Part shown: positions 14,598 to 62,879 of the stretch, piece after piece | How positions within the stretch are numbered: the stretch's first letter is position 1 | How the letters are laid out: every line of letters begins with the position of its first letter | Origin: Lutjanus erythropterus | Taxonomy: Eukaryota; Chordata; Actinopteri; Lutjaniformes; Lutjanidae | Direction: 5' to 3' | Assembly (NCBI GenBank): GCA_020091685.1 | Contig: CM034595.1 | Coordinates: 24,537,564-24,601,563 of the forward strand | Length of the DNA stretch: 64,000 nt | Position numbers and translations under genes: made by a program | The notes under the pieces: model-generated | Database searches by the model: none | Told to the model about the DNA's origin: nothing | What the model saw: only the letters and a program-made list of their open reading frames with translations

Positions 14598-17500
14598 ATG
14601 ATGACGAACTCTCAGTCTCTACACCTGTTCCTTGTCCCTGTTGTGTTTGCTTTACTTTCACACCTCCTCTGCCCTGCATCTGCCAGTTTGGGGTCTGACT
14701 ATGACTACGGTGCCCACCCACGCTTTGTTTGTACCCCTATTCCCGTGGACGCAGACCCTGCCTGCTTCCCTGCAGCAGCAGCTCCAGGCGTAGGGGCAGC
14801 AGGGCCCAGCGGACCACCAAACCATCAAAGTGCACCTCCAGCTGGCTGGTGGGGGGCGAGCGAAGAAGCCAAAGCAACCATCCTCCACCTGAGGGAGAGC
14901 CTCGTCCAGCAGAAAGAGACCATCCTGGACCAGAGGGAGACCATCAGAGAGCTGACGGCCAAGCTCACCCTGTGCGAAGGCCTCGGACGGGGCACCGCGC
15001 CACATGATGAGCACCATGGCACAGGCTCGCACTCACATCACGCAGGTCATCACACGTACACTGACAACGGGCACTATAGCAACCATCAGGGTCACCATGG
15101 AAACAGCAACCTCATACCGGACTCACCTCACTACCCCTCGGTGGGGGGGCATCGATCTGATGGAATCCACAGCAGCAGCAACAACCACGGGAAGGATAAA
15201 CATGTGACACCGGGGGACGTCACATCATCACCAGACCAGATGGAGAGGATGCTGCAGGCACTGAAGGAGCGGCTGGACAACCTGCAGGTGAGCAGCGAGA
15301 AGAGGAAACTTTTTCAAGTACTTTTAAATAAAGATAAGTTAAGAGGAAGAAGAGAACGTTAGAAGAAGTTAAAAGTAAATGTGTTACATGGGTGGGGTTG
15401 ATTCTTTTAAGTATTATGATTCCTTTTTTTTTACTACTTCTGAATAGATTGTTCTTCTGAATGGATTTTATATGTACTAAATAACTAACACTTATGGCAG
15501 GCTACGGCAACCTCAAAGGGTCAAAACCCAAACTGTATTCAAAAATACTAGGTGGAGACATTGTGTGCTAGGAGAAGGCAATACATATTTTCTTATCATC
15601 CATTTTATTTGTTATTATTCAAACACAAACTAGATGAGCAGGAACAGCTAAATGTAACAGCTGACTTCAAAAAGTATATATTTTGTATTCATTCTATTGC
15701 ACATTTTATTTACCACTTTTAGATACAATATAGCGAAGATGCTACTGATATAAAACTTTTTCCCATGGTCAAAGAAAATAAAAATCTGAATAAATCATAC
15801 TATTGAATTTCAATACTTGCAAAATTATAATAATCAGCGCCCAAGTATTGAGAGGTATCAAATCCAGAGATAAGTGTATTTCCCCAGCCCTATAAGAAAA
15901 GAGTAGGAATTGGAGCAAGGCTTGTGATGTGCAGCATGCCCATATATGGCTTTTCCTTGTCTGGACACTTAATGCTGTCGTCACCGGATTGTTTGTCGAA
16001 ACAATCAATTCCCAAAGCAGTGTGTCCGTCCGCTAAGTACTTTAAACAAAGGAACAATGAATTACTTAATCACATAATGCCACTCACTGCATTAGCAAGA
16101 GAGTCACTCTGAGGTCCCTCAGTGGGCACCTGAGAGCAGCACCAGACTCAGAGGTGGACGTCACTGATGTAGGGTACTCTTGCGTAAGGTTACAGTGAAT
16201 TGACATTTAAGTTTTGGTGGAAATTTTTATTTCTTATGGTCCCATTTTCTCTCGAGTTACTGATTGTCTTTACTCTCTTGGTACATTTACCTGTGCCTTT
16301 CTGCCGTCTCTCCATCTTGGATCAAGATCACAGACAGATGTCAAGAGCTGTGAAGTGTGTAGGGGGGTTGGGGGGGTTAGAGAGGGTGGCACGGGTCTAA
16401 CATCAGCAGTAATTATCGTGATCTCCCTTGACATACTGATAATCAGGGCATGGACCAGGACAAAGCCTGGATTACCTGAGAGGAGGAGAAGTCAGGGAAG
16501 ATGCAGGAAGACATATAGAGCCACAACATACCCGACTATTGCGTTTGACAAGATTATTAGTGAATATAGAAGAGTGCAAAAGACACACAAGTGTTCTCTT
16601 GGCTATGCTCAGACTACAGTTGTGCTCAGATCTGTTTTTTTTTCATGACTGTGTGAACAGCATAAATCACATGTAATCTGATCTTCTCACTTCTGACTTG
16701 TGCCACTTTCCTTTTTACGTCACTCTAGTTTGACAGCTGTGATGGAGCTGCTGACAGATGTAGTTAAAAGTAGCCCTTGACATCCTGACATTTTGGAATA
16801 AATCTGTTTCTCTAAGCCATTTCACATTATGATTCATCCCAATCACCCACAACTCCTTGCTTCGACTCTTCATTCACACACACCTCCAAATAGAAGTAGC
16901 AGCCATTGCTCCACAAATAGCCATAATTAAAAAAACTGTCTCTCTTTCTTATCAACTGCTGACAAATTCACTGAGATCAACTGCACATCAATTGATAAGC
17001 AAAACCATAAACGCTGACTTCAGTGGCTTGAATGTGTACTTCTATACAACAGCATGCTGGGTGACGGCTTTGCTATTGTTCTTTTGATAATGCAGGCCTC
17101 AACAATAAGGATTGCCAGGGCAAGTGGCAAAAACAAATTTTAACAACTTTTTTGATTATCGATTAAAGATTAAAGTCATGTTTCTTGCAAAAAAAAAGGC
17201 AGAAAATGATGTTCCAGCCTCTCAAACATGGAGATTTCCTGCTTTTCTCTGCTTGAGAAACTGGGATGGGCATTTTATAGACGTTGCGGCTGGCATGAAA
17301 ATTAACTTTAGTCTTTTTATCACTATATTTGAATTTAGCAGTAGGGCTTGCAGTGTGAATGTAGCCTTAGACTTGCAGGTGACAGATGACCAGATGCTCA
17401 GCCAAATGAACTGAAGCCAGTTTGCGTTTTTTGCCAAAGCACCAGAGATGCTTTTGTCCTCTCTGGTATAAATAAGAAGCACAGGGGTTACTTATTGTTA

Positions 17501-17865
17501 TCTGGACTTCACCTGTGTGTTTCTCCATCTCCATCAGCAGAAGAGGAACACATCCATCACCTACTCCAGCTCTCTGAAGGAGCTGCTTCAGAGGAAGATC
17601 AATGCTCTGGAACAGCAGCTGCACCATCACACCTCCGCCCTCAGCAGCCCAGACCATCACGACGATGACAGCAGCCACAGGGACGACGGAGACCACCACG
17701 ATGATGATGATCACCATGACGATGGACACCCAAATGACCACAAGGACGACCACGATGACGGCGGTCACAGCGACAGCGACAACCACACCGACCATCATGA
17801 CAACAGCCACAATGATGACCATCACGATACAGATGGTGACCATGATGACCATGATGATGGCCACC

Positions 17866-17899
<34 letters not shown>

Positions 17900-19592
17900 C
17901 CACCACAGTAATGAAGCAGACAGTCACAGTTACCTTCCACACACAGCACACAGAACACCAGGGCCACGTGCTGGTTTTCACTCAAATAAACTGGAAACGA
18001 TGCTCAACCAGCTGCACCTCGCAGGTACGCACCCACTGCAGCAACTTTATAACATGCAGTTATGAGTTGTATTAGTCTGTATGAAAGAAGCAGCACTTTG
18101 TATACGTCATGTGAGGAGGGTGATATCATGATTATCATTTTTATGTGTTTCTTTCTTTCACTATTCTCAAACATTAAATCGATAATAACAAGAAACAGTC
18201 ATATGATTCAATCAAAAGCACCAGACCAGAAAAAATACTAATGACCATAACTTGGTGAGACTGTTTTAGCCACTTCTTTTTTTTTTCCAAAACAGGTAGA
18301 AAGAAATCCAAGAGTCCTGACGCCTTCCAGATCAGTTTCCCCATGAGAACCAACTACATGTACGGGCGGGTGAAGAGAACGCTGCTGCAGGAGATCTTCG
18401 CTATGACTTTGTGTCTTTGGATCAAGGCAGGCATGGGGCCTGGCCTAGGGACACCCTTCTCTTACTCTGCACCTGGACAGGCCAATGAGCTGGTGCTCAT
18501 CGAGTGGGGGAACAACCCCATGGAACTGCTGATCGATGACAAGGTGAGGGAGAAAACATACAAACCCTGCAGCACTGTCAGTTACAGTGTTAAAGGCCCT
18601 GATTTTCTCAATCAGCATCTTACTGTGAGTGACAGGAACCTCTATGAACATACAAGTTTCATTCTCACTTTATGGTTATTTCACATTAGATATTTCTTTT
18701 TTTTTTTGTGCCTGTGCTCTTCTAACTGGTTTGAGGTGGTCAGAGCTATGTTATAACATGTTATAACACACACACATATGTTATAACATACTACAGTCTT
18801 GTCCCAGGACATATTTATATTAGTGTCTCACCATTTTCACTATCCCATCCTCAGGCTGTGACACTCCCCCTGTCCCTGGGTGATGGGAAGTGGCACCACT
18901 TGTGTGTGACTTGGTCAACACGAGATGGACAGTGGGAGGCCTACCAGGATGGCGTGCAGAGGGGGTCCGGGATCAATCTCTCGCCCTGGCACCCAATCAA
19001 ACCTGGAGGAGTCTTCATCCTGGGACAGGAACAGGTAAAGATGAAAACATTCATTCTCTATAGAAAATATACAATCTAAGATACCTGAAAGAAAGAACTC
19101 CAAGTTTCCTTGTTATACTCCCGAGCCTCTGACAGGCCCAGTCTTTTTTTCATCCTTTGTACCATGAAGTACCTGTATTTGTTCACGTTTGGTAATGTTT
19201 TGGTAGATTCTGTTTCAAACAATGGGCTCCTTTAATGCAAACATTGCCAAATCTCTATATTTCATTTAACATTTGCCTTGACCGCTTTATATTTCACTGA
19301 ATCATTAAATATTCTGTATAATCTTCAAAACAAACCAATGATACCTGTCAAGACTGACCATTCCTTGGTTTGTCTTCTTCAGGACACTCTGGGAGGCCGT
19401 TTTGATGCCACTCAGTCGTTTGTGGGTGAGATGTCGGACGTGCACATGTGGTCACATGTCCTGACTGCGAGTGACATCTATAACCTGGCCTCCTGCGGCA
19501 GCCACCTCAGAGGAGACGTCATCGCTTGGTCCGACTCAGAGGTGGAGCTTCGTGGAGGCGTCTCCAGATACCCCTTTGACCCCTGTCATTAA
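14598..19592 (+). CDS. Neuronal-pentraxin-like secreted protein with His/Asp-rich insert
   Basis: Five coding exons join in phase: 14598-15287, 17541-18024 (or from 17538), 18296-18543, 18855-19034 and 19383-19592, giving 603 aa. The family norm is about 430-500 aa. Start is the ATG at 14598; an adjacent ATG follows. Residues 1 to about 30 look like a signal peptide ending near SASA. Then come an Ala/Pro/Gly segment, a coiled-coil piece with QKETILDQRETIRELTAKL as in neuronal pentraxins, and a His-rich block. Exon 2 opens with a second helical piece (SLKELLQRKINALEQQL) and continues into the His/Asp tract. Residues from about 400 form the pentraxin domain, with TNYMYGRVKRTL, GTPFSYSAPGQANELVLIEW, the signature HLCVTWST (489-496) and FDATQSFVGE. 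Cys in TLCLW and HLCVTW match the usual disulfide. Neuronal pentraxins cluster AMPA receptors at synapses through Ca-dependent multimers. The paralogue is unclear: the C-terminus (VSRYPFDPCH) differs from NPTX1, NPTX2 and NPTXR. Confidence 0.9.
15363..17537 (+). other. Intron 1 of the pentraxin-like gene
   Basis: The intron proper runs from the GTGAGC donor at 15288 to the CAGCAG acceptor before 17541. No conserved exon is seen inside. A 144-codon open frame at about 16214-16648 has no recognisable domain. Confidence 0.6.
17622..17906 (+). repeat. Coding His/Asp low-complexity tract (residues about 258-352)
   Basis: Roughly 95 codons made mostly of GAC/GAT and CAC/CAT with scattered Gly, Ser and Asn. 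They include 11 consecutive Asp codons at 17868-17900 (ten GAT, then GAC). Outside that run, both synonymous codons are mixed, so the amino-acid pattern is not just one trinucleotide slippage product. All six frames stay open through most of it because of the triplet structure. The plus frame with His/Asp is the one whose flanks join the conserved exons in phase. Confidence 0.9.
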
Positions 19593-27109: not shown

Positions 27110-27270
27110 TATCCTGGGGCGGTCTCGGGAATCATCGGTCTCTGTCGGCTTTTTCCGCCGATCTCGGTCAGTTAGCTAGCGAGGCTGATTAGCCTGCTAC
27201 TACCAGCTAATGTTTGTGGGATATTTATTGTTAGCTGAGTCGGTGTGGATGATACAAATAGTGTAGAAAA
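27110..27270 (+). promoter_or_regulatory. snx27: CpG-rich promoter/5'UTR of snx27
   Basis: A local rise in CpG (GGGGCGGTCTCGGG, CCGCCGATCTCGG) against AT-rich surroundings directly precedes the start codon. No TATA box is seen, as expected for a broadly expressed gene. The exact start site is not determinable. Confidence 0.55.
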
Positions 27271-40572
<13,302 letters not shown>

Positions 40573-57800: not shown

Positions 57801-60000
57801 TCTCTATACGCCACACCTGTCAGGTGGATGGATTGTGTTGGCAAAGTATAAGATGTTCACAAACAGAGATTTTAACAAATTTGTGAACAGCATTTGAGAA
57901 AATAAACCTTCTGTGTGCATAGAAGAGGTCTGAGATTCTTTGCTTCAACTCATGAAAAATGGGAGCAAAAACAAATGTGCTGCGTTTATATTTTTGTTGG
58001 GTGTATATTTTATCTTACAGCAGCTGCACCTCCTGTTTTCCATTTTCTCATATTCAGCCCCTGTCATTGTCGCACCATCTCTCACCCCTATTCTTCTCCA
58101 CCCTCCTCTTTATTATTCCTCACCCAGGCTGATCTTCTCCCCCGAGTTGGCAGGGAGCAGGAAGACCAGCAGGGTCATGGAGGAGAGGAGCACACAGGGA
58201 ATGAGGAGGTTGAGAGCATAAAACAAGGTCCTCCTTCGTAAAGTCACCACAAAGGTGACATCGGGGTAGGGCTCTGCACAGCAGTCATAGAAAACTTCAT
58301 GGCGACCTCCAGGGACCTCTGAGGAAGACGAAAGACACGGGCGCAGTAAAGACAACATTATGATGCAGAAAACACCAGCAAGGGCTGAGAAAGCAAGCAA
58401 AACAACACATAAAGACTCTCAAGAACTCAATATAACTAAGTGTACTTTGTTTCAACTGCTGAATGCTGGTCTGCATCACAAAAAGATGTTACCAAGATCT
58501 AGATTTCTTTGGTGTGAGTTGCCGAATTTTGGAGGCATCAGACGTAGAGATGTCTGCCTTCTCTCCAATATAATGGAAGTGAATGGCACTCAGCTTGCAG
58601 TGCTCAAAGCACCAAAAAATATATATTTGAAAAATTCAAGTGTTTCCTTCCAAAAATCATGACCAGGTTACTCAAGATAATCCACACGCTTTATTGTGAG
58701 CAGTCTCATGTAGGAACTACTTTCTTTCTGCAGTAGAAATACTAATAGAACTACTTTTGTTTCTGCCAGAAAGAAAGTAACTCCTACATTAAACTGCTCA
58801 CAACAAGGCCTGTGGATTATCTTGAATAACCATGTCATGACTCATAGACAGAGACAGTGGTTTTCAGATTTTCTTTTTTTTTCTTCTTCTTCTTTTTTTG
58901 GTGCGTTGACCACTATAAGAGCACATAAAAAATACGTATTTTTGATTTTGGATTCAACTGTCCCTTTAATGTCAAACAAATGTATTTGTGCTGAATGTGC
59001 CTTTAGTGGAGCATATCGTGTCTCTCAGCACCAGCAGTCTGCAACTCTCAGATTGTGTTAAATCACTGTCAGCAACTGTAGCAATTATATTGTGTGCCGT
59101 TTGAATGTGTGTTTTGTGTTGCAGATTTTCTGCATTCTAGTCAGTCTGTGTGGATTTGTGTTTGTTAAATATTTAGGTAAGTTTGGTGTTTTGGTGCATA
59201 AAATCATATGAAAACATCCAAGCTAAAAGTGTATTGCCACTGTATTTTCACTCTGTCAAGTTAGTTTCAGTTTATTAGTCATACTCCAACTATTTCTCCC
59301 ACTTAAATCCAATTACACATCTATATATAAAGCTAATTAATGTTTAGGTCTTTACAGGTCAGGCACAGAACTGCATGGCAGTAATGTAAGTACTGTTTCT
59401 AAGCAACACTGTTTCTCATCCATGCAGGGATTTGACAACTAGTCTTACCCAGCAGGTCCCACTCTCCGTTGGGCATATATCCTGACACATCTGCCTCCTT
59501 CATCTGGATGTCCAGCAACCAGCCGTCAAATGTCCAGGAGCCAAACTTGAGCTCACAGCGCTGGATGTCAAATGGAAACCATCGCACATCCACGTTACAT
59601 GTGCTGATAAATATTCCTTGAAAAACAGGGGAAAAACAGTGAAAATACTAAATATCAAAGTCAAGTAAAACCATCCAAAGAGATAGTGATGAAGGAAAAA
59701 AACTGATTAAAAATGTTTAGTGCAGCCGTCTAGAAGTAAGTGAAGAAGAAGATATTTGATTGCAGTAATTAATTTGCTGCTGTGTGAGTGATGCATGCAG
59801 AACGACTGAAGACATAGTTTGCCGAATAATTAAAAATCACTTACCTGGAGGCAGATACTCACAGAAGCCACTGGAGTTAACCAGCACATTGGTCTTAAAG
59901 GTGGCATCAAACTTATCATGAGCACTGAAGGAGAGTGAGGAGACAGTTTAGAACTCAGCAGCAGCAGCAGCACTCTGTGTGTGTGTGTGTGTGTGTGTGC

Positions 60001-60065
<65 letters not shown>

Positions 60066-62879
60066 TATACCTGTTGTACAGCAGTATGTCGGGTGTCCAG
60101 ACCTGGTCGGGAGTGAAACGGAGGTTTTTAACTCCTGGATACTCTGACTGGTTCCACTGGAGGTAGTGATCGTACCACTGCTGGGAGACAGAAGCACAAC
60201 ACTAGTTTTACATACGAGCAAAAATGAAGATATATACAAACAGACAAGACAATCACTGTCAGCCTGATTTTTTATTTTTATTTTATTATTCTCCAGGTGA
60301 ATACTCCAAGGCAAACCGCAAGTTTTATATAAAATTAAAATGCTTCTATTTTACATGGCAGAAGATCTTCATCAGGGTCGGTCTGGAGTAACTTGCGCAC
60401 CTATGCTTACTATTATTATTTTGGCTATTTTTCTTATTACAACCAAGGGTATAAAGGTATACTATGCAGGATTTTCCCTTAAAATCTATATAAAAATAAT
60501 CTCTGTCAATCATCACTTATGATACATTAAAATGAAGCTGTGGTTTACTGTGTACAGAACCCTTCTGGTTGTCAGGACTCAAGTCAGGCCTCTATAAAAA
60601 CATAGCTACCAATGGTTACAATGCTGTCTACATCTCTTTCCTCTGCTCACTGTCTGTGAGAGCTGCATAGAGAGCTACACACACAAACACACACACAGGC
60701 AGAGAAGAAGGAGAACGATGGACAGGATGAAGTCTCTTTTCATCCGGAACTCCAAAATCTGGAGTTGTGGGTGTGTTTATTTGTGCTTTACAATTGAACC
60801 ACTGTGAAACAATCAGAAAATAATGTTTTACTCTTTAATATATTCTTGCTAGTGCCGCTCCCTCCCTTCATTCTCTCTCTAGCTCTCTCGTTGAGCCGGA
60901 CAGGAGGGTCTTTGAATGGTGCGTTTACAGACAGCAACCGGCAAATCCTGCATAATCTACCTTTAAGGTGTCATATGTGGTATAGACTGTAAAGCCCTTT
61001 GAGGCAAACATTGTGATATGTGATTCTGGGCTAAATAACACTGACTTAGTAAAAAGCAAAAATCTCTTCGCTGCTCAAGTGTCCATTATCATGACTCTGA
61101 AACTCAAGCAGCATCTGGGATGGTACTGTGTAGCTGCAAGGGACGGGGTGGATGACGATGATTTTCACTACACAGATCAATATCACATTATTAACTGTTA
61201 TTCACTATACTCACCATCTGCAGCCAGGCATTCGTAGTGATGATCTGGTTCTTTTCATCCTGGCATAAGAAAACGAACATGAGATGATAGTTGATTTAAT
61301 GAGTTAAAGGATAAAACAATTGTGACATTTTACAGGTTATTCATCACTGCAATTATTCTGTACTCTCCACAGTGGCTTTGAAGAAACTGTGTTTGTTACA
61401 TGATCTAACGAATTTATCTGATTAAAGTGCATTTCTTATCTTGTTATTTTGTTCTCTAATTATTCCCATAATTACTCAATAATATGTAGTAATATGTGTT
61501 TCAGCAATATTATAACTTTAACGTGTTCAATAAAGCTTGAACAGAATTGAGAGAAAAAGATTCCTTTCTAATCTTACTAATCACACCACACCATCAGCTG
61601 CCTTTAATTTCTCTGGCATAGTTTCTGATTTTACTTCTATACTTATTTTGATTATATATATCACTTTTTATTTTTTACTTTCTTTATCTGTATTTATTTG
61701 TGCTGTTGTCATGAACGAATTGGCTCATATGAGCCAGGTGCTTTAAGTGAACAGTAGGAGCTTGCTTCTGTTTGAGAGGCATTTTCTTTTGTTTTTTCTT
61801 TCTTCTTGTTTTTTTTTTTTTTTAATTTAATAGGACAGAATAATAAGATAAACTCTACTCGCTGACTACGCATACTGACTGAACATTGATGTGTATGTGT
61901 GTGCAACTAATCACGTGAGGACAGGTAGAGATCATATCAGGTTAATAGCAGGCAGGAGGCTGAAGCTGGTCGTTTTATGGCACAAAGTAATATTATGTTG
62001 ATAAGTTATTTTTTCATGTATTGGGACGTCTAAGTTTGAATGTGTTCCAAAATTTACCCTATCATTATCCTCGTGATTTTGCAGATAAATATAGTTACTG
62101 CTGAATGGCAGTTGGAAAGGAACAACGCTCCCTTGCTCCCTTCAAGGACCCCTAATTCCAGTCACTTCAAATGTTTCTTCTGGAGAGCAATAAAGTCTTA
62201 TCATCTTATCTAATGTGACTCCAATTAAAGTGATGGGAGACAAAAAATCCAGATTCCTCATTCTGTGTGAAAATGCATCCCAAGTTCAGCTAAAAATAAC
62301 GTAAGCTGTAGGCTTTAGCCTGTTATCAGCCTGATTTGTCAACTTGTTATACTCTGTTTCCTTATTCAGAGAATCAGTCACCTCGGTGGAGTGGGCGGAT
62401 TCGAAGGTCTGTACCCAGGCAAATGAGGCTTCAAAGCAGTCTGAAAAGTCAAGCTGGTATCTTCTGTAGTTAGTTACAGCATTTTTAATATGAAATTCAC
62501 TCTTTGTGTTATTACTTCTAAAAAGTTTGGAAGGTACCCATTTGATTCAGACTGAAGCTTCAGCTAAACTTTAGAATATAGAGAATATGGAGAGCAGTAA
62601 CAACTACAGCAACTAATTAAACTTACTTATAAGTGTGAGCATTAACATCAGGCACTTCAACAAGTATGTTTTTTTGTTTGAATGTACTGCGTGGGTGTGT
62701 AGTTTGTCTGTGTCTATGATGCGTTTCTATCTTGCGTACCACATCCATGACCTGCATCAGAGTGAAGGAGAACTGAACAGTGAGAGCCTGGGAGTCGTTG
62801 GCCACCGGCCTCTCCATGGGGTTGTAGTCTCTCAGCAGCTCCCTGAGGAGGAACCGCTGGTGGGGACCCTGCACTGACA
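51834..62879 (-). CDS. Neuronal nicotinic acetylcholine receptor, alpha7/8/11 type, exons 2-10 (partial)
   Basis: Nine minus-strand exons join in phase: 62879-62740, 61259-61215, 60180-60071, 59924-59845, 59616-59449, 58318-58124, 56314-56228, 56063-55954 and 52718-51834. Their sizes (140, 45, 110, 80, 168, 195, 87 and 110 nt, then the last) follow the vertebrate alpha7 plan. Seen in order: [16 protein letters not shown]; the 13-residue Cys loop [15 protein letters not shown]; the agonist-site Trp of FGSWTFDGW; the vicinal cysteines in [12 protein letters not shown], which mark an alpha subunit; the M2 pore segment [19 protein letters not shown] with the cation-selective GEK; M3; and the C-terminus [13 protein letters not shown]. 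Alpha7-type subunits form Ca-permeable homopentamers gated by acetylcholine. The M3-M4 loop is longer than in human alpha7. The signal-peptide exon lies right of the window. The teleost paralogue (possibly chrna11) is not settled. Confidence 0.92.
53712..54026. mobile_element. MITE with GGGCTGAGTATC / GGTACCCAGCCC ends
   Basis: The left TAGGGCTGAGTATCATTC and right TTCGGTACCCAGCCCT are inverted repeats around 315 bp containing further inverted GGTATC/GATACT words. In nAChR intron 9. Confidence 0.65.
54590..54990 (+). mobile_element. Degenerate LINE reverse-transcriptase 3' fragment
   Basis: The plus strand keeps broken blocks resembling the end of L2/Rex-type frames: a [13 protein letters not shown] reading, then CCAGAGAATTGCTGCAAAAC, then GCATGACCGGGCACCTGGCT, then a TGGAACAAACTGCCTGAGAA block (W/NKLPE-like). 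Several stops and frameshifts show it is dead. Antisense to the nAChR gene. Confidence 0.55.
56955..57604. mobile_element. hAT-type MITE with perfect 8-bp target duplication (650 bp)
   Basis: The left end CAGTGTTGGGCAAGTTACT and right end GTTACTGCCCAACACCA are inverted repeats. GTTAGGGT is present immediately on both sides (56947-56954 and 57605-57612). Lies in nAChR intron 7. Confidence 0.88.
58657..58840. mobile_element. Foldback (hairpin) element with about 85-bp arms
   Basis: The left arm from TCATGACCAGGTTACTCAAG is the imperfect reverse complement of the right arm ending CTTGAATAACCATGTCATGA. The arms agree at most positions and leave a loop of about 10-15 nt. Lies in nAChR intron 6, probably at the centre of a longer element. 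Confidence 0.8.
59975..60063. repeat. (TG)n microsatellite filling a short nAChR intron
   Basis: About 89 nt of TG with a GCGCG interruption. On the minus strand it is a CA repeat that begins just after the exon 4 donor (GTATAAGC) and takes up most of the 146-nt intron. Confidence 0.97.
60455..60962. mobile_element. TTAA-associated MITE in nAChR intron 3
   Basis: The left end AGGTATACTATGCAGGATTT and right end AAATCCTGCATAATCTACCT are inverted repeats. The right flank is TTAA (60963-60966); the left flank is a degenerate ATAA. No coding capacity. Confidence 0.7.
61260..62739 (-). other. nAChR intron 2
   Basis: 1.5 kb between the 45-nt and 140-nt exons. It includes an A/T homopolymer near 61810. 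No exon or complete repeat recognised. Confidence 0.6.

What the first reader, a model, noticed from the sequence alone, without database searches (positions are those of the whole stretch)
17622..17906. A neuronal-pentraxin-like protein carries a roughly 95-residue His/Asp tract, a possible metal-binding module
Seen: an in-phase exon joins a helical segment and a complete pentraxin domain through a tract made almost only of His and Asp, with both synonymous codons mixed. Known: NPTX1, NPTX2 and NPTXR have coiled coils in this position and their pentraxin domain binds calcium. Inference: dense DHH/HDD patterns could bind zinc, copper or calcium in the synaptic cleft or change multimer assembly. 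A plain microsatellite expansion tolerated in a linker is the main alternative.
Basis: partly seen in the sequence, partly recalled or inferred. Interest (0 to 1): 0.78.

Follow-up and report, generated by a model that had tools for sequence, protein, structure and literature searches.

The report
Fish pentraxin with conserved histidine-aspartate linker
A little-studied fourth type of neuronal pentraxin gene in bony fishes carries a very long stretch of histidine and aspartate that many fish lineages have kept, which suggests that the stretch does something (perhaps sensing zinc or acidity) rather than being a stray repeat.

Summary
Window 17622-17906 is 95 in-frame codons, 71.6% His+Asp, inside exon 2 of an open five-exon, 603-aa neuronal-pentraxin-like gene. 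It is not a private expansion: of 140 fetched relatives of at least 540 aa, 113 have a 60-residue stretch with at least 60% His+Asp and 137 at least 45%; named rows run from snapper to zebrafish, tarpon and arapaima. The gene falls in a fourth neuronal-pentraxin clade. The same genome holds a second copy with open exons and a 213-codon tract; its two nptx1 copies have an ordinary coiled-coil exon there. A second His-rich linker in exon 1 was overlooked. Composition persists while sequence changes; after correction for chance matches, His is only modestly better conserved than most neighbours and Asp is not. Best guess, at even odds: a disordered metal- and pH-responsive linker that tunes spacing or assembly of pentraxin heads. 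Conservation is shown; sensing is inference. A tolerated, self-renewing repeat remains the main rival. Expression, metal binding and presence outside teleosts were not tested.

The parts
14598..15287 (+). Exon 1: signal-peptide-like start (by eye), Cys-containing N-terminus, coiled coil 1, His-rich linker 1, start of coiled coil 2
   Evidence: gene model; donor GT at 15288
14859..14978 (+). Coiled coil 1 (SEEAKATILHLRESLVQQKETILDQRETIRELTAKLTLCE), ends at a conserved Cys
   Evidence: mostly invariant or nearly invariant in 30 aligned relatives; helix 88-126 in the otherwise low-confidence model of P0002
15003..15203 (+). His-rich linker 1 (exon 1)
   Evidence: in 87 parsed group-a rows (window protein included) linker 1 has median 91 aa and 15.6% His, in 26 group-b rows median 84 aa and 27.5% His
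15240..15287 (+). First part of coiled coil 2
   Evidence: alignment with relatives
17541..18024 (+). Exon 2 (acceptor ends 17540, or 17537 by NAGNAG); 484 nt, asymmetric
17541..17621 (+). Helix KRNTSITYSSSLKELLQRKINALEQQL, with an NTS sequon
   Evidence: resembles the exon 2 helix of nptx1 in L010/L011
17622..17906 (+). His/Asp tract, 95 codons, 71.6% H+D (the finding)
17866..17899 (+). Pure ATG repeat inside the tract, encodes poly-Asp
   Evidence: tandem repeat finder
17907..17984 (+). Rest of linker 2, less biased (SNEADSHSYLPHT...)
17985..18023 (+). Short helix NKLETMLNQLHLA, last piece of coiled coil 2
   Evidence: by eye corresponds to RVESTLTSLHQRI of nptx1
18296..18543 (+). Exon 3, start of pentraxin domain
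18855..19034 (+). Exon 4, pentraxin domain
19383..19592 (+). Exon 5, pentraxin domain from DTLGGRFDATQ to the stop

Best explanation
The window holds one of two copies of a fourth neuronal-pentraxin type. Its multimer-forming stalk is interrupted by two linkers, one His-rich (exon 1) and one His/Asp-rich (exon 2, the finding), expected to be disordered. Shown: open gene, position within the coiled-coil-2 region, and persistence of the His/Asp composition in nearly all long teleost relatives fetched and in both copies of this genome. Inferred: in a disulphide-linked multimer many tracts lie side by side and form a flexible polyanion at neutral pH; Zn2+ (or Cu2+/Ca2+) binding or His protonation collapses or cross-links it and so changes the spacing, clustering or ligand avidity of the pentraxin heads, much as the histidine-rich region is thought to do in HRG.
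For: Frame and exons open. Of 140 fetched relatives of at least 540 aa, 135 reach 50% H+D in 60 residues and 137 reach 45%. Linker 2 in 87 parsed group-a rows (window included): median 115 aa, D 27.0%, H 23.4%, 0 Cys; in 26 parsed group-b rows: median 159 aa, H 34.1%, D 18.5%, 0 Cys. The C17 copy has 213 tract codons with 92 H and 55 D and an open frame in each of five exons. Pairwise alignment of the linker with 57 percomorph relatives gives 0.73 identity against 0.47 for shuffled linkers. Asp is replaced by Glu more often than a one-step mutation model predicts (share 0.33 against 0.11-0.20). Third positions of CAN/GAN codons are C/T in 68 of 68 here and 147 of 148 in the C17 copy, against 48 of 87 in the rest of the window CDS. 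NP2 oligomerisation runs through the coiled coils and grows with Ca2+ (PMC12799932, passages). HRG precedent for Zn2+/pH sensing by a His-rich stretch (PMC5372734, passages). Calculated charge of the window's linker 2 goes from -36.6 at pH 7.4 to -11.6 at pH 5.5 (textbook pKa values).
Against: No metal-binding, expression or structural datum. After correction for chance matches the conservation excess is H 0.59, D 0.41, G/S/T/A/P 0.49, N 0.49, other residues 0.75: selection on single His sites looks modest and on Asp sites is not visible. The C/T-only third positions are partly explained by a mixed repeat unit GAT-GAC-CAC-CAY in the C17 copy. 27 of 140 long relatives stay below 60% H+D; pufferfish P0061 and pipefish P0203 have thin tracts, Xiphophorus P0063 and Fundulus P0069 Glu-rich ones, and one Arapaima copy (P0207) is His-rich with little Asp. 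The AlphaFold model was poor (mean pLDDT 47.4).
Confidence: 0.5

Rival explanations
1. Tolerated repeat: GAY/CAY triplet and minisatellite slippage keeps regenerating a His/Asp tract in a linker where almost any hydrophilic sequence will do; composition persists by mutation bias rather than by use.
For: Repeat arrays at 17832-17902; linker 2 length varies 45-149 aa in group a (the 45 is P0059, a cut gene model by my reading) and 120-242 in group b; DDHH-unit array in the C17 copy; only modest excess of His conservation and none for Asp.
Against: Same two positions in both gene copies across teleosts and no Cys in the parsed linkers; 17622-17831 and linker 1 are in no reported tandem array; linkers align with those of percomorph relatives above shuffles; Asp-to-Glu replacement enriched; the two nptx1 linkers of this genome did not expand.
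Confidence: 0.27
2. Entropic, acidic spacer: only length, hydrophilicity and negative charge matter (solubility, repulsion between heads, loose Ca2+ buffering as in HRC or calsequestrin, both recalled); His is incidental.
For: Charge negative at pH 7.4, median -28 in group a and -19 in group b; Asp often replaced by Glu, and Glu-rich ends in some fishes.
Against: Group b has more His than Asp; Arapaima copy P0207 keeps His with little Asp; linker 1 is His- but not Asp-rich; His sites have the higher corrected conservation of the two.
Confidence: 0.18
3. Artefact: wrong exon, unspliced intron or assembly error.
For: Many shorter gene models lack the tract, many of them UniProt entries named Si:dkey; by my reading they cut it out as an intron.
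Against: Open frame through the exons with GT-AG; same exon in relatives; most NCBI-named long models keep it; P0025, 611 uninterrupted residues from a 2904-base contig, is too short to hold a gene with introns like these and so is probably a spliced transcript with the tract (inference).
Confidence: 0.03

Closest known systems
NPTX1 / NPTX2 (neuronal pentraxins 1 and 2)
   Same: N-terminal cysteines, coiled coils, C-terminal pentraxin domain (320.9 bits to NPTX2 9lad, 312.9 to NPTX1 6ype)
   Different: Separate clade; two long His-rich linkers; linker 2 is about 120 aa where nptx1 has about 22 aa between the two helix parts (by eye)
NPTXR
   Same: Pentraxin domain, long N-terminus, five exons (PMC8866268 passages)
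   Different: The two nptxr-like copies of this genome (my label) fall apart from the His-type clade; the window protein begins with a signal-peptide-like stretch by eye, not tested with a predictor
Histidine-rich glycoprotein (HRG) His-rich region
   Same: Long His-rich stretch in a secreted protein; Zn2+/pH sensing described for HRG (PMC5372734, passages)
   Different: GHHPH repeats, different protein family; no metal data here
HRC, calsequestrin, ZnT/ZIP loops (recalled, no call)
   Same: His/acid-, acid- or His-rich disordered stretches linked to Ca2+ or Zn2+
   Different: Intracellular or organellar, unrelated domains

Membership tests
Neuronal pentraxin family | C-terminal pentraxin domain of NPTX type | tested here: met
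Neuronal pentraxin family | N-terminal coiled coils with conserved cysteines | tested here: met
   Sequence and exon correspondence with nptx1; C44 and C55 nearly invariant, C125 invariant in 30 aligned relatives (P0002 numbering); helices predicted in a low-confidence model; role of three cysteines from PMC12799932 passages
Neuronal pentraxin family | Five-exon gene structure | tested here: met
   five exons stated for NPTXR in PMC8866268 passages
Neuronal pentraxin family | Two Ca2+ sites in the pentraxin domain | tested here: inconclusive
   GQEQDTLGGRFDATQ much as in NPTX1/2 (alignment); binding not measured
Neuronal pentraxin family | Expression in neurons, binding to AMPA receptors | not tested
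   no expression or binding data
NPTX1, NPTX2 or NPTXR orthologue | Groups inside one of the three clades | tested here: not met
   16 His-type rows form their own clade, support 99/96; nptx1, nptx2 and nptxr-like pairs of the genome fall elsewhere (24 rows; two further His-type rows were not used)
Zn2+/pH-sensing His-rich region (HRG-like mechanism) | Measured metal binding or pH-dependent change | not testable with these tools
   composition and calculated charge only

The most novel reading that the evidence does not exclude
Teleosts have kept a fourth neuronal pentraxin, absent from the three-member family of the mammalian reviews, whose stalk is a zinc- and proton-gated switch: His/Asp tracts of many subunits form a metal-cross-linked brush, so that zinc released with transmitter, or acidification of the cleft, reversibly draws pentraxin heads and bound receptors together. 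It would be a synaptic organiser that reads the ionic state of the cleft.
Probability: 0.2. Interest if true: 0.85.

Novelty: new variant of a known kind. Interest (0 to 1): 0.58.

Why it matters
A 2021 review describes neuronal pentraxins as a family of three (PMC8866268, passages). A fourth clade with a His/Asp stalk, kept by both gene copies in widely separated teleosts, would be a natural experiment on what the pentraxin stalk does, and a clean test of whether the composition of a low-complexity tract, rather than its sequence, is under selection. It also shows how automatic annotation cuts out or misnames such tracts, which may be why I found no paper on the gene in the searches made.

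Tried and rejected
Private expansion: rejected by relatives. The first conservation test (Mann-Whitney p about 5e-5 for His, 1e-3 for H+D) was inflated by chance matches of abundant residues; one search replaces it. The neutral third-position simulation (0 of 400 runs without purines at each of four kappa values) assumes a uniform starting repeat; one search shows a mixed unit in the C17 copy, so I give it little weight. Structure prediction was too poor to use beyond the helices; no fold search was run. Shared neighbours: window reading frames of 35 or more codons, SNX27 and alpha-7-like exons among them, gave no match to either gene in about 75 kb downstream of the C17 copy (upstream only about 9 kb was covered), so calling the two copies teleost-duplication duplicates rests on tree and distribution only. 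Group a/b: 16 rows that lay on the group-a side of the midpoint root as a branch of support 0.062 were moved by me to b by branch and linker features; one search leaves Megalops, Hoplias and Labeo unresolved. Rows dropped: P0168 and P0207; 13 of 100 (a) and 13 of 39 (b) unparsed; 29 of the 87 parsed group-a rows (non-percomorph by my knowledge of names, plus P0025 unnamed and P0059 cut); P0165 and P0207. Searches failed by script errors. In one search the His-to-Leu count was entered as zero because it was outside the ten listed. Literature searches; one search found no paper with dkey-283b15.2 or dkey-14o18.2;'s 19 papers 12 were listed and only titles and abstract starts were seen. Papers seen beyond listings, passages only: PMC12799932, PMC8866268, PMC5372734, PMC8770521.

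Full report
Observation. The tract is real and at the stated place. Exon 2 (17541-18024) reads through in the frame set by exon 1 and joins exon 3 in phase; the five exons give 603 residues with GT-AG junctions. Codons 17622-17906 are 42 Asp and 26 His of 95. GAT/GAC and CAC/CAT are mixed and no Glu or Gln codon occurs. Exon 2 has 484 nt, so skipping it breaks the frame. Imperfect arrays cover 17832-17902 and a pure ATG run 17866-17899; the rest of the tract is in no reported array. Exon 1 carries another His-rich linker, about 15003-15203.

What gene. The C-terminal 203 residues match solved NPTX2 and NPTX1 domains and the Pfam pentraxin model. The window's own genome shows eight places with this exon, a lower bound by the tool's own note: the window, a second His-type copy on C17, and pairs that group with NPTX1, with NPTX2, and apart from both (nptxr-like, my label). 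A 24-row tree puts 16 His-type rows in their own clade, support 99/96. Because nptx1 in the same genome has a plain exon 2 of about 70 residues (QQFSRSNNSVQANSLKDLLQSKIDDLEKQVLSRVNSIEEGKPGLRNETEQRGRVESTLTSLHQRITDLEKG, L010), the tract can be placed by eye: an expansion between the two helical parts of coiled coil 2. Exon 2 of the nptx2 and nptxr-like copies was not recovered. The C17 copy has an open frame in all five exons, a 213-codon tract (92 His, 55 Asp) and a His-rich exon 1 linker of its own; its splice sites were not checked.

How widespread. Three protein searches returned 1151, 314 and 253 hits, of which 120 each are listed; their union is 206 proteins. Every row that bears an organism name is, by my knowledge of the names, a teleost; a few rows have no name. 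Of 140 rows of at least 540 aa, 113 reach 60% H+D in a 60-residue stretch, 135 reach 50% and 137 reach 45%; the three below are, by my reading, two gene models with foreign or cut sequence at this place (P0059, P0142) and an Arapaima copy that is His-rich with little Asp (P0207). Of 66 shorter rows 5 reach 60% and 53 are under 45%; many look like models that cut the tract out. Linkers were parsed in 87 of 100 group-a rows (the window protein included) and 26 of 39 group-b rows; none of the parsed linkers contains Cys. Both groups include acanthomorphs and more distant teleosts, so the bias probably goes back to the teleost genome duplication (inference; its age of about 300 million years is recalled). 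Whether gar, sturgeon, sharks or tetrapods have the gene is open.

Selection or slippage. Linkers of 57 percomorph relatives align with the window's at 0.73 identity against 0.47 for shuffled linkers; the corrected excess is H 0.59, D 0.41, G/S/T/A/P 0.49, N 0.49, other 0.75. His sites are more alike than G/S/T/A/P/N sites in 55 of 57 species, a figure not corrected for chance. An earlier uncorrected test overstated the difference. Asp changes to Glu and to His more than a one-step model expects, while His changes roughly as expected. So composition is firmly kept, position only moderately.

Mechanism. In NP2 the coiled coils drive trimer-based assembly, Ca2+ enlarges it, and three N-terminal cysteines are thought to link subunits (PMC12799932, passages). 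The His-type protein keeps three N-terminal cysteines but its stalk is broken by two linkers. A multimer would hold a hundred or more His and Asp side chains in a small volume (inference). HRG shows that such a His-rich stretch can sense Zn2+ and pH (PMC5372734, passages). I therefore favour a metal/pH-responsive linker, at about even odds, with tolerated repeat and plain acidic spacer as rivals.

Limits. No expression, no coding DNA of other species, no metal data; the structure model was poor; the genome-wide search for similar tracts did not complete.

Noticed in passing
window 27262-33808 and beyond, +: SNX27-like gene; its PX exon matches sorting nexin-27; the PDZ exon at 27262-27606 was read by eye
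   Followed up: partly
window about 58113-60201, -: Nicotinic acetylcholine receptor subunit, best match alpha-7 from two joined exon pieces
   Followed up: partly
G000:C17:32692971-32693609 (L009), minus strand: Second gene copy with a DDHH-unit tract of 213 codons, commonest unit GAT-GAC-CAC-CAY
   Followed up: partly
window 17535-17540: NAGNAG acceptor (CAGCAG) at exon 2, adds or drops one Gln; relatives show both forms (QQKRN in P0022, QKRN in P0002)
   Followed up: no
window 17547-17555: N-glycosylation sequon NTS just after the exon 1/2 junction, N and S nearly invariant among 30 relatives (N232, S234 of P0002)
   Followed up: no
rows P0026, P0191, P0202: Relatives named tyrosine-protein phosphatase non-receptor type 3, myb-like protein A and GATA zinc finger domain-containing protein 14-like, perhaps through low-complexity matches
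   Followed up: no
P0207 (Arapaima second copy): Linker is His-rich with little Asp, hinting that His is the more constrained residue
   Followed up: no
P0063, P0069 (Xiphophorus, Fundulus): The end of the tract is a Glu-rich acidic run instead of His/Asp
   Followed up: no
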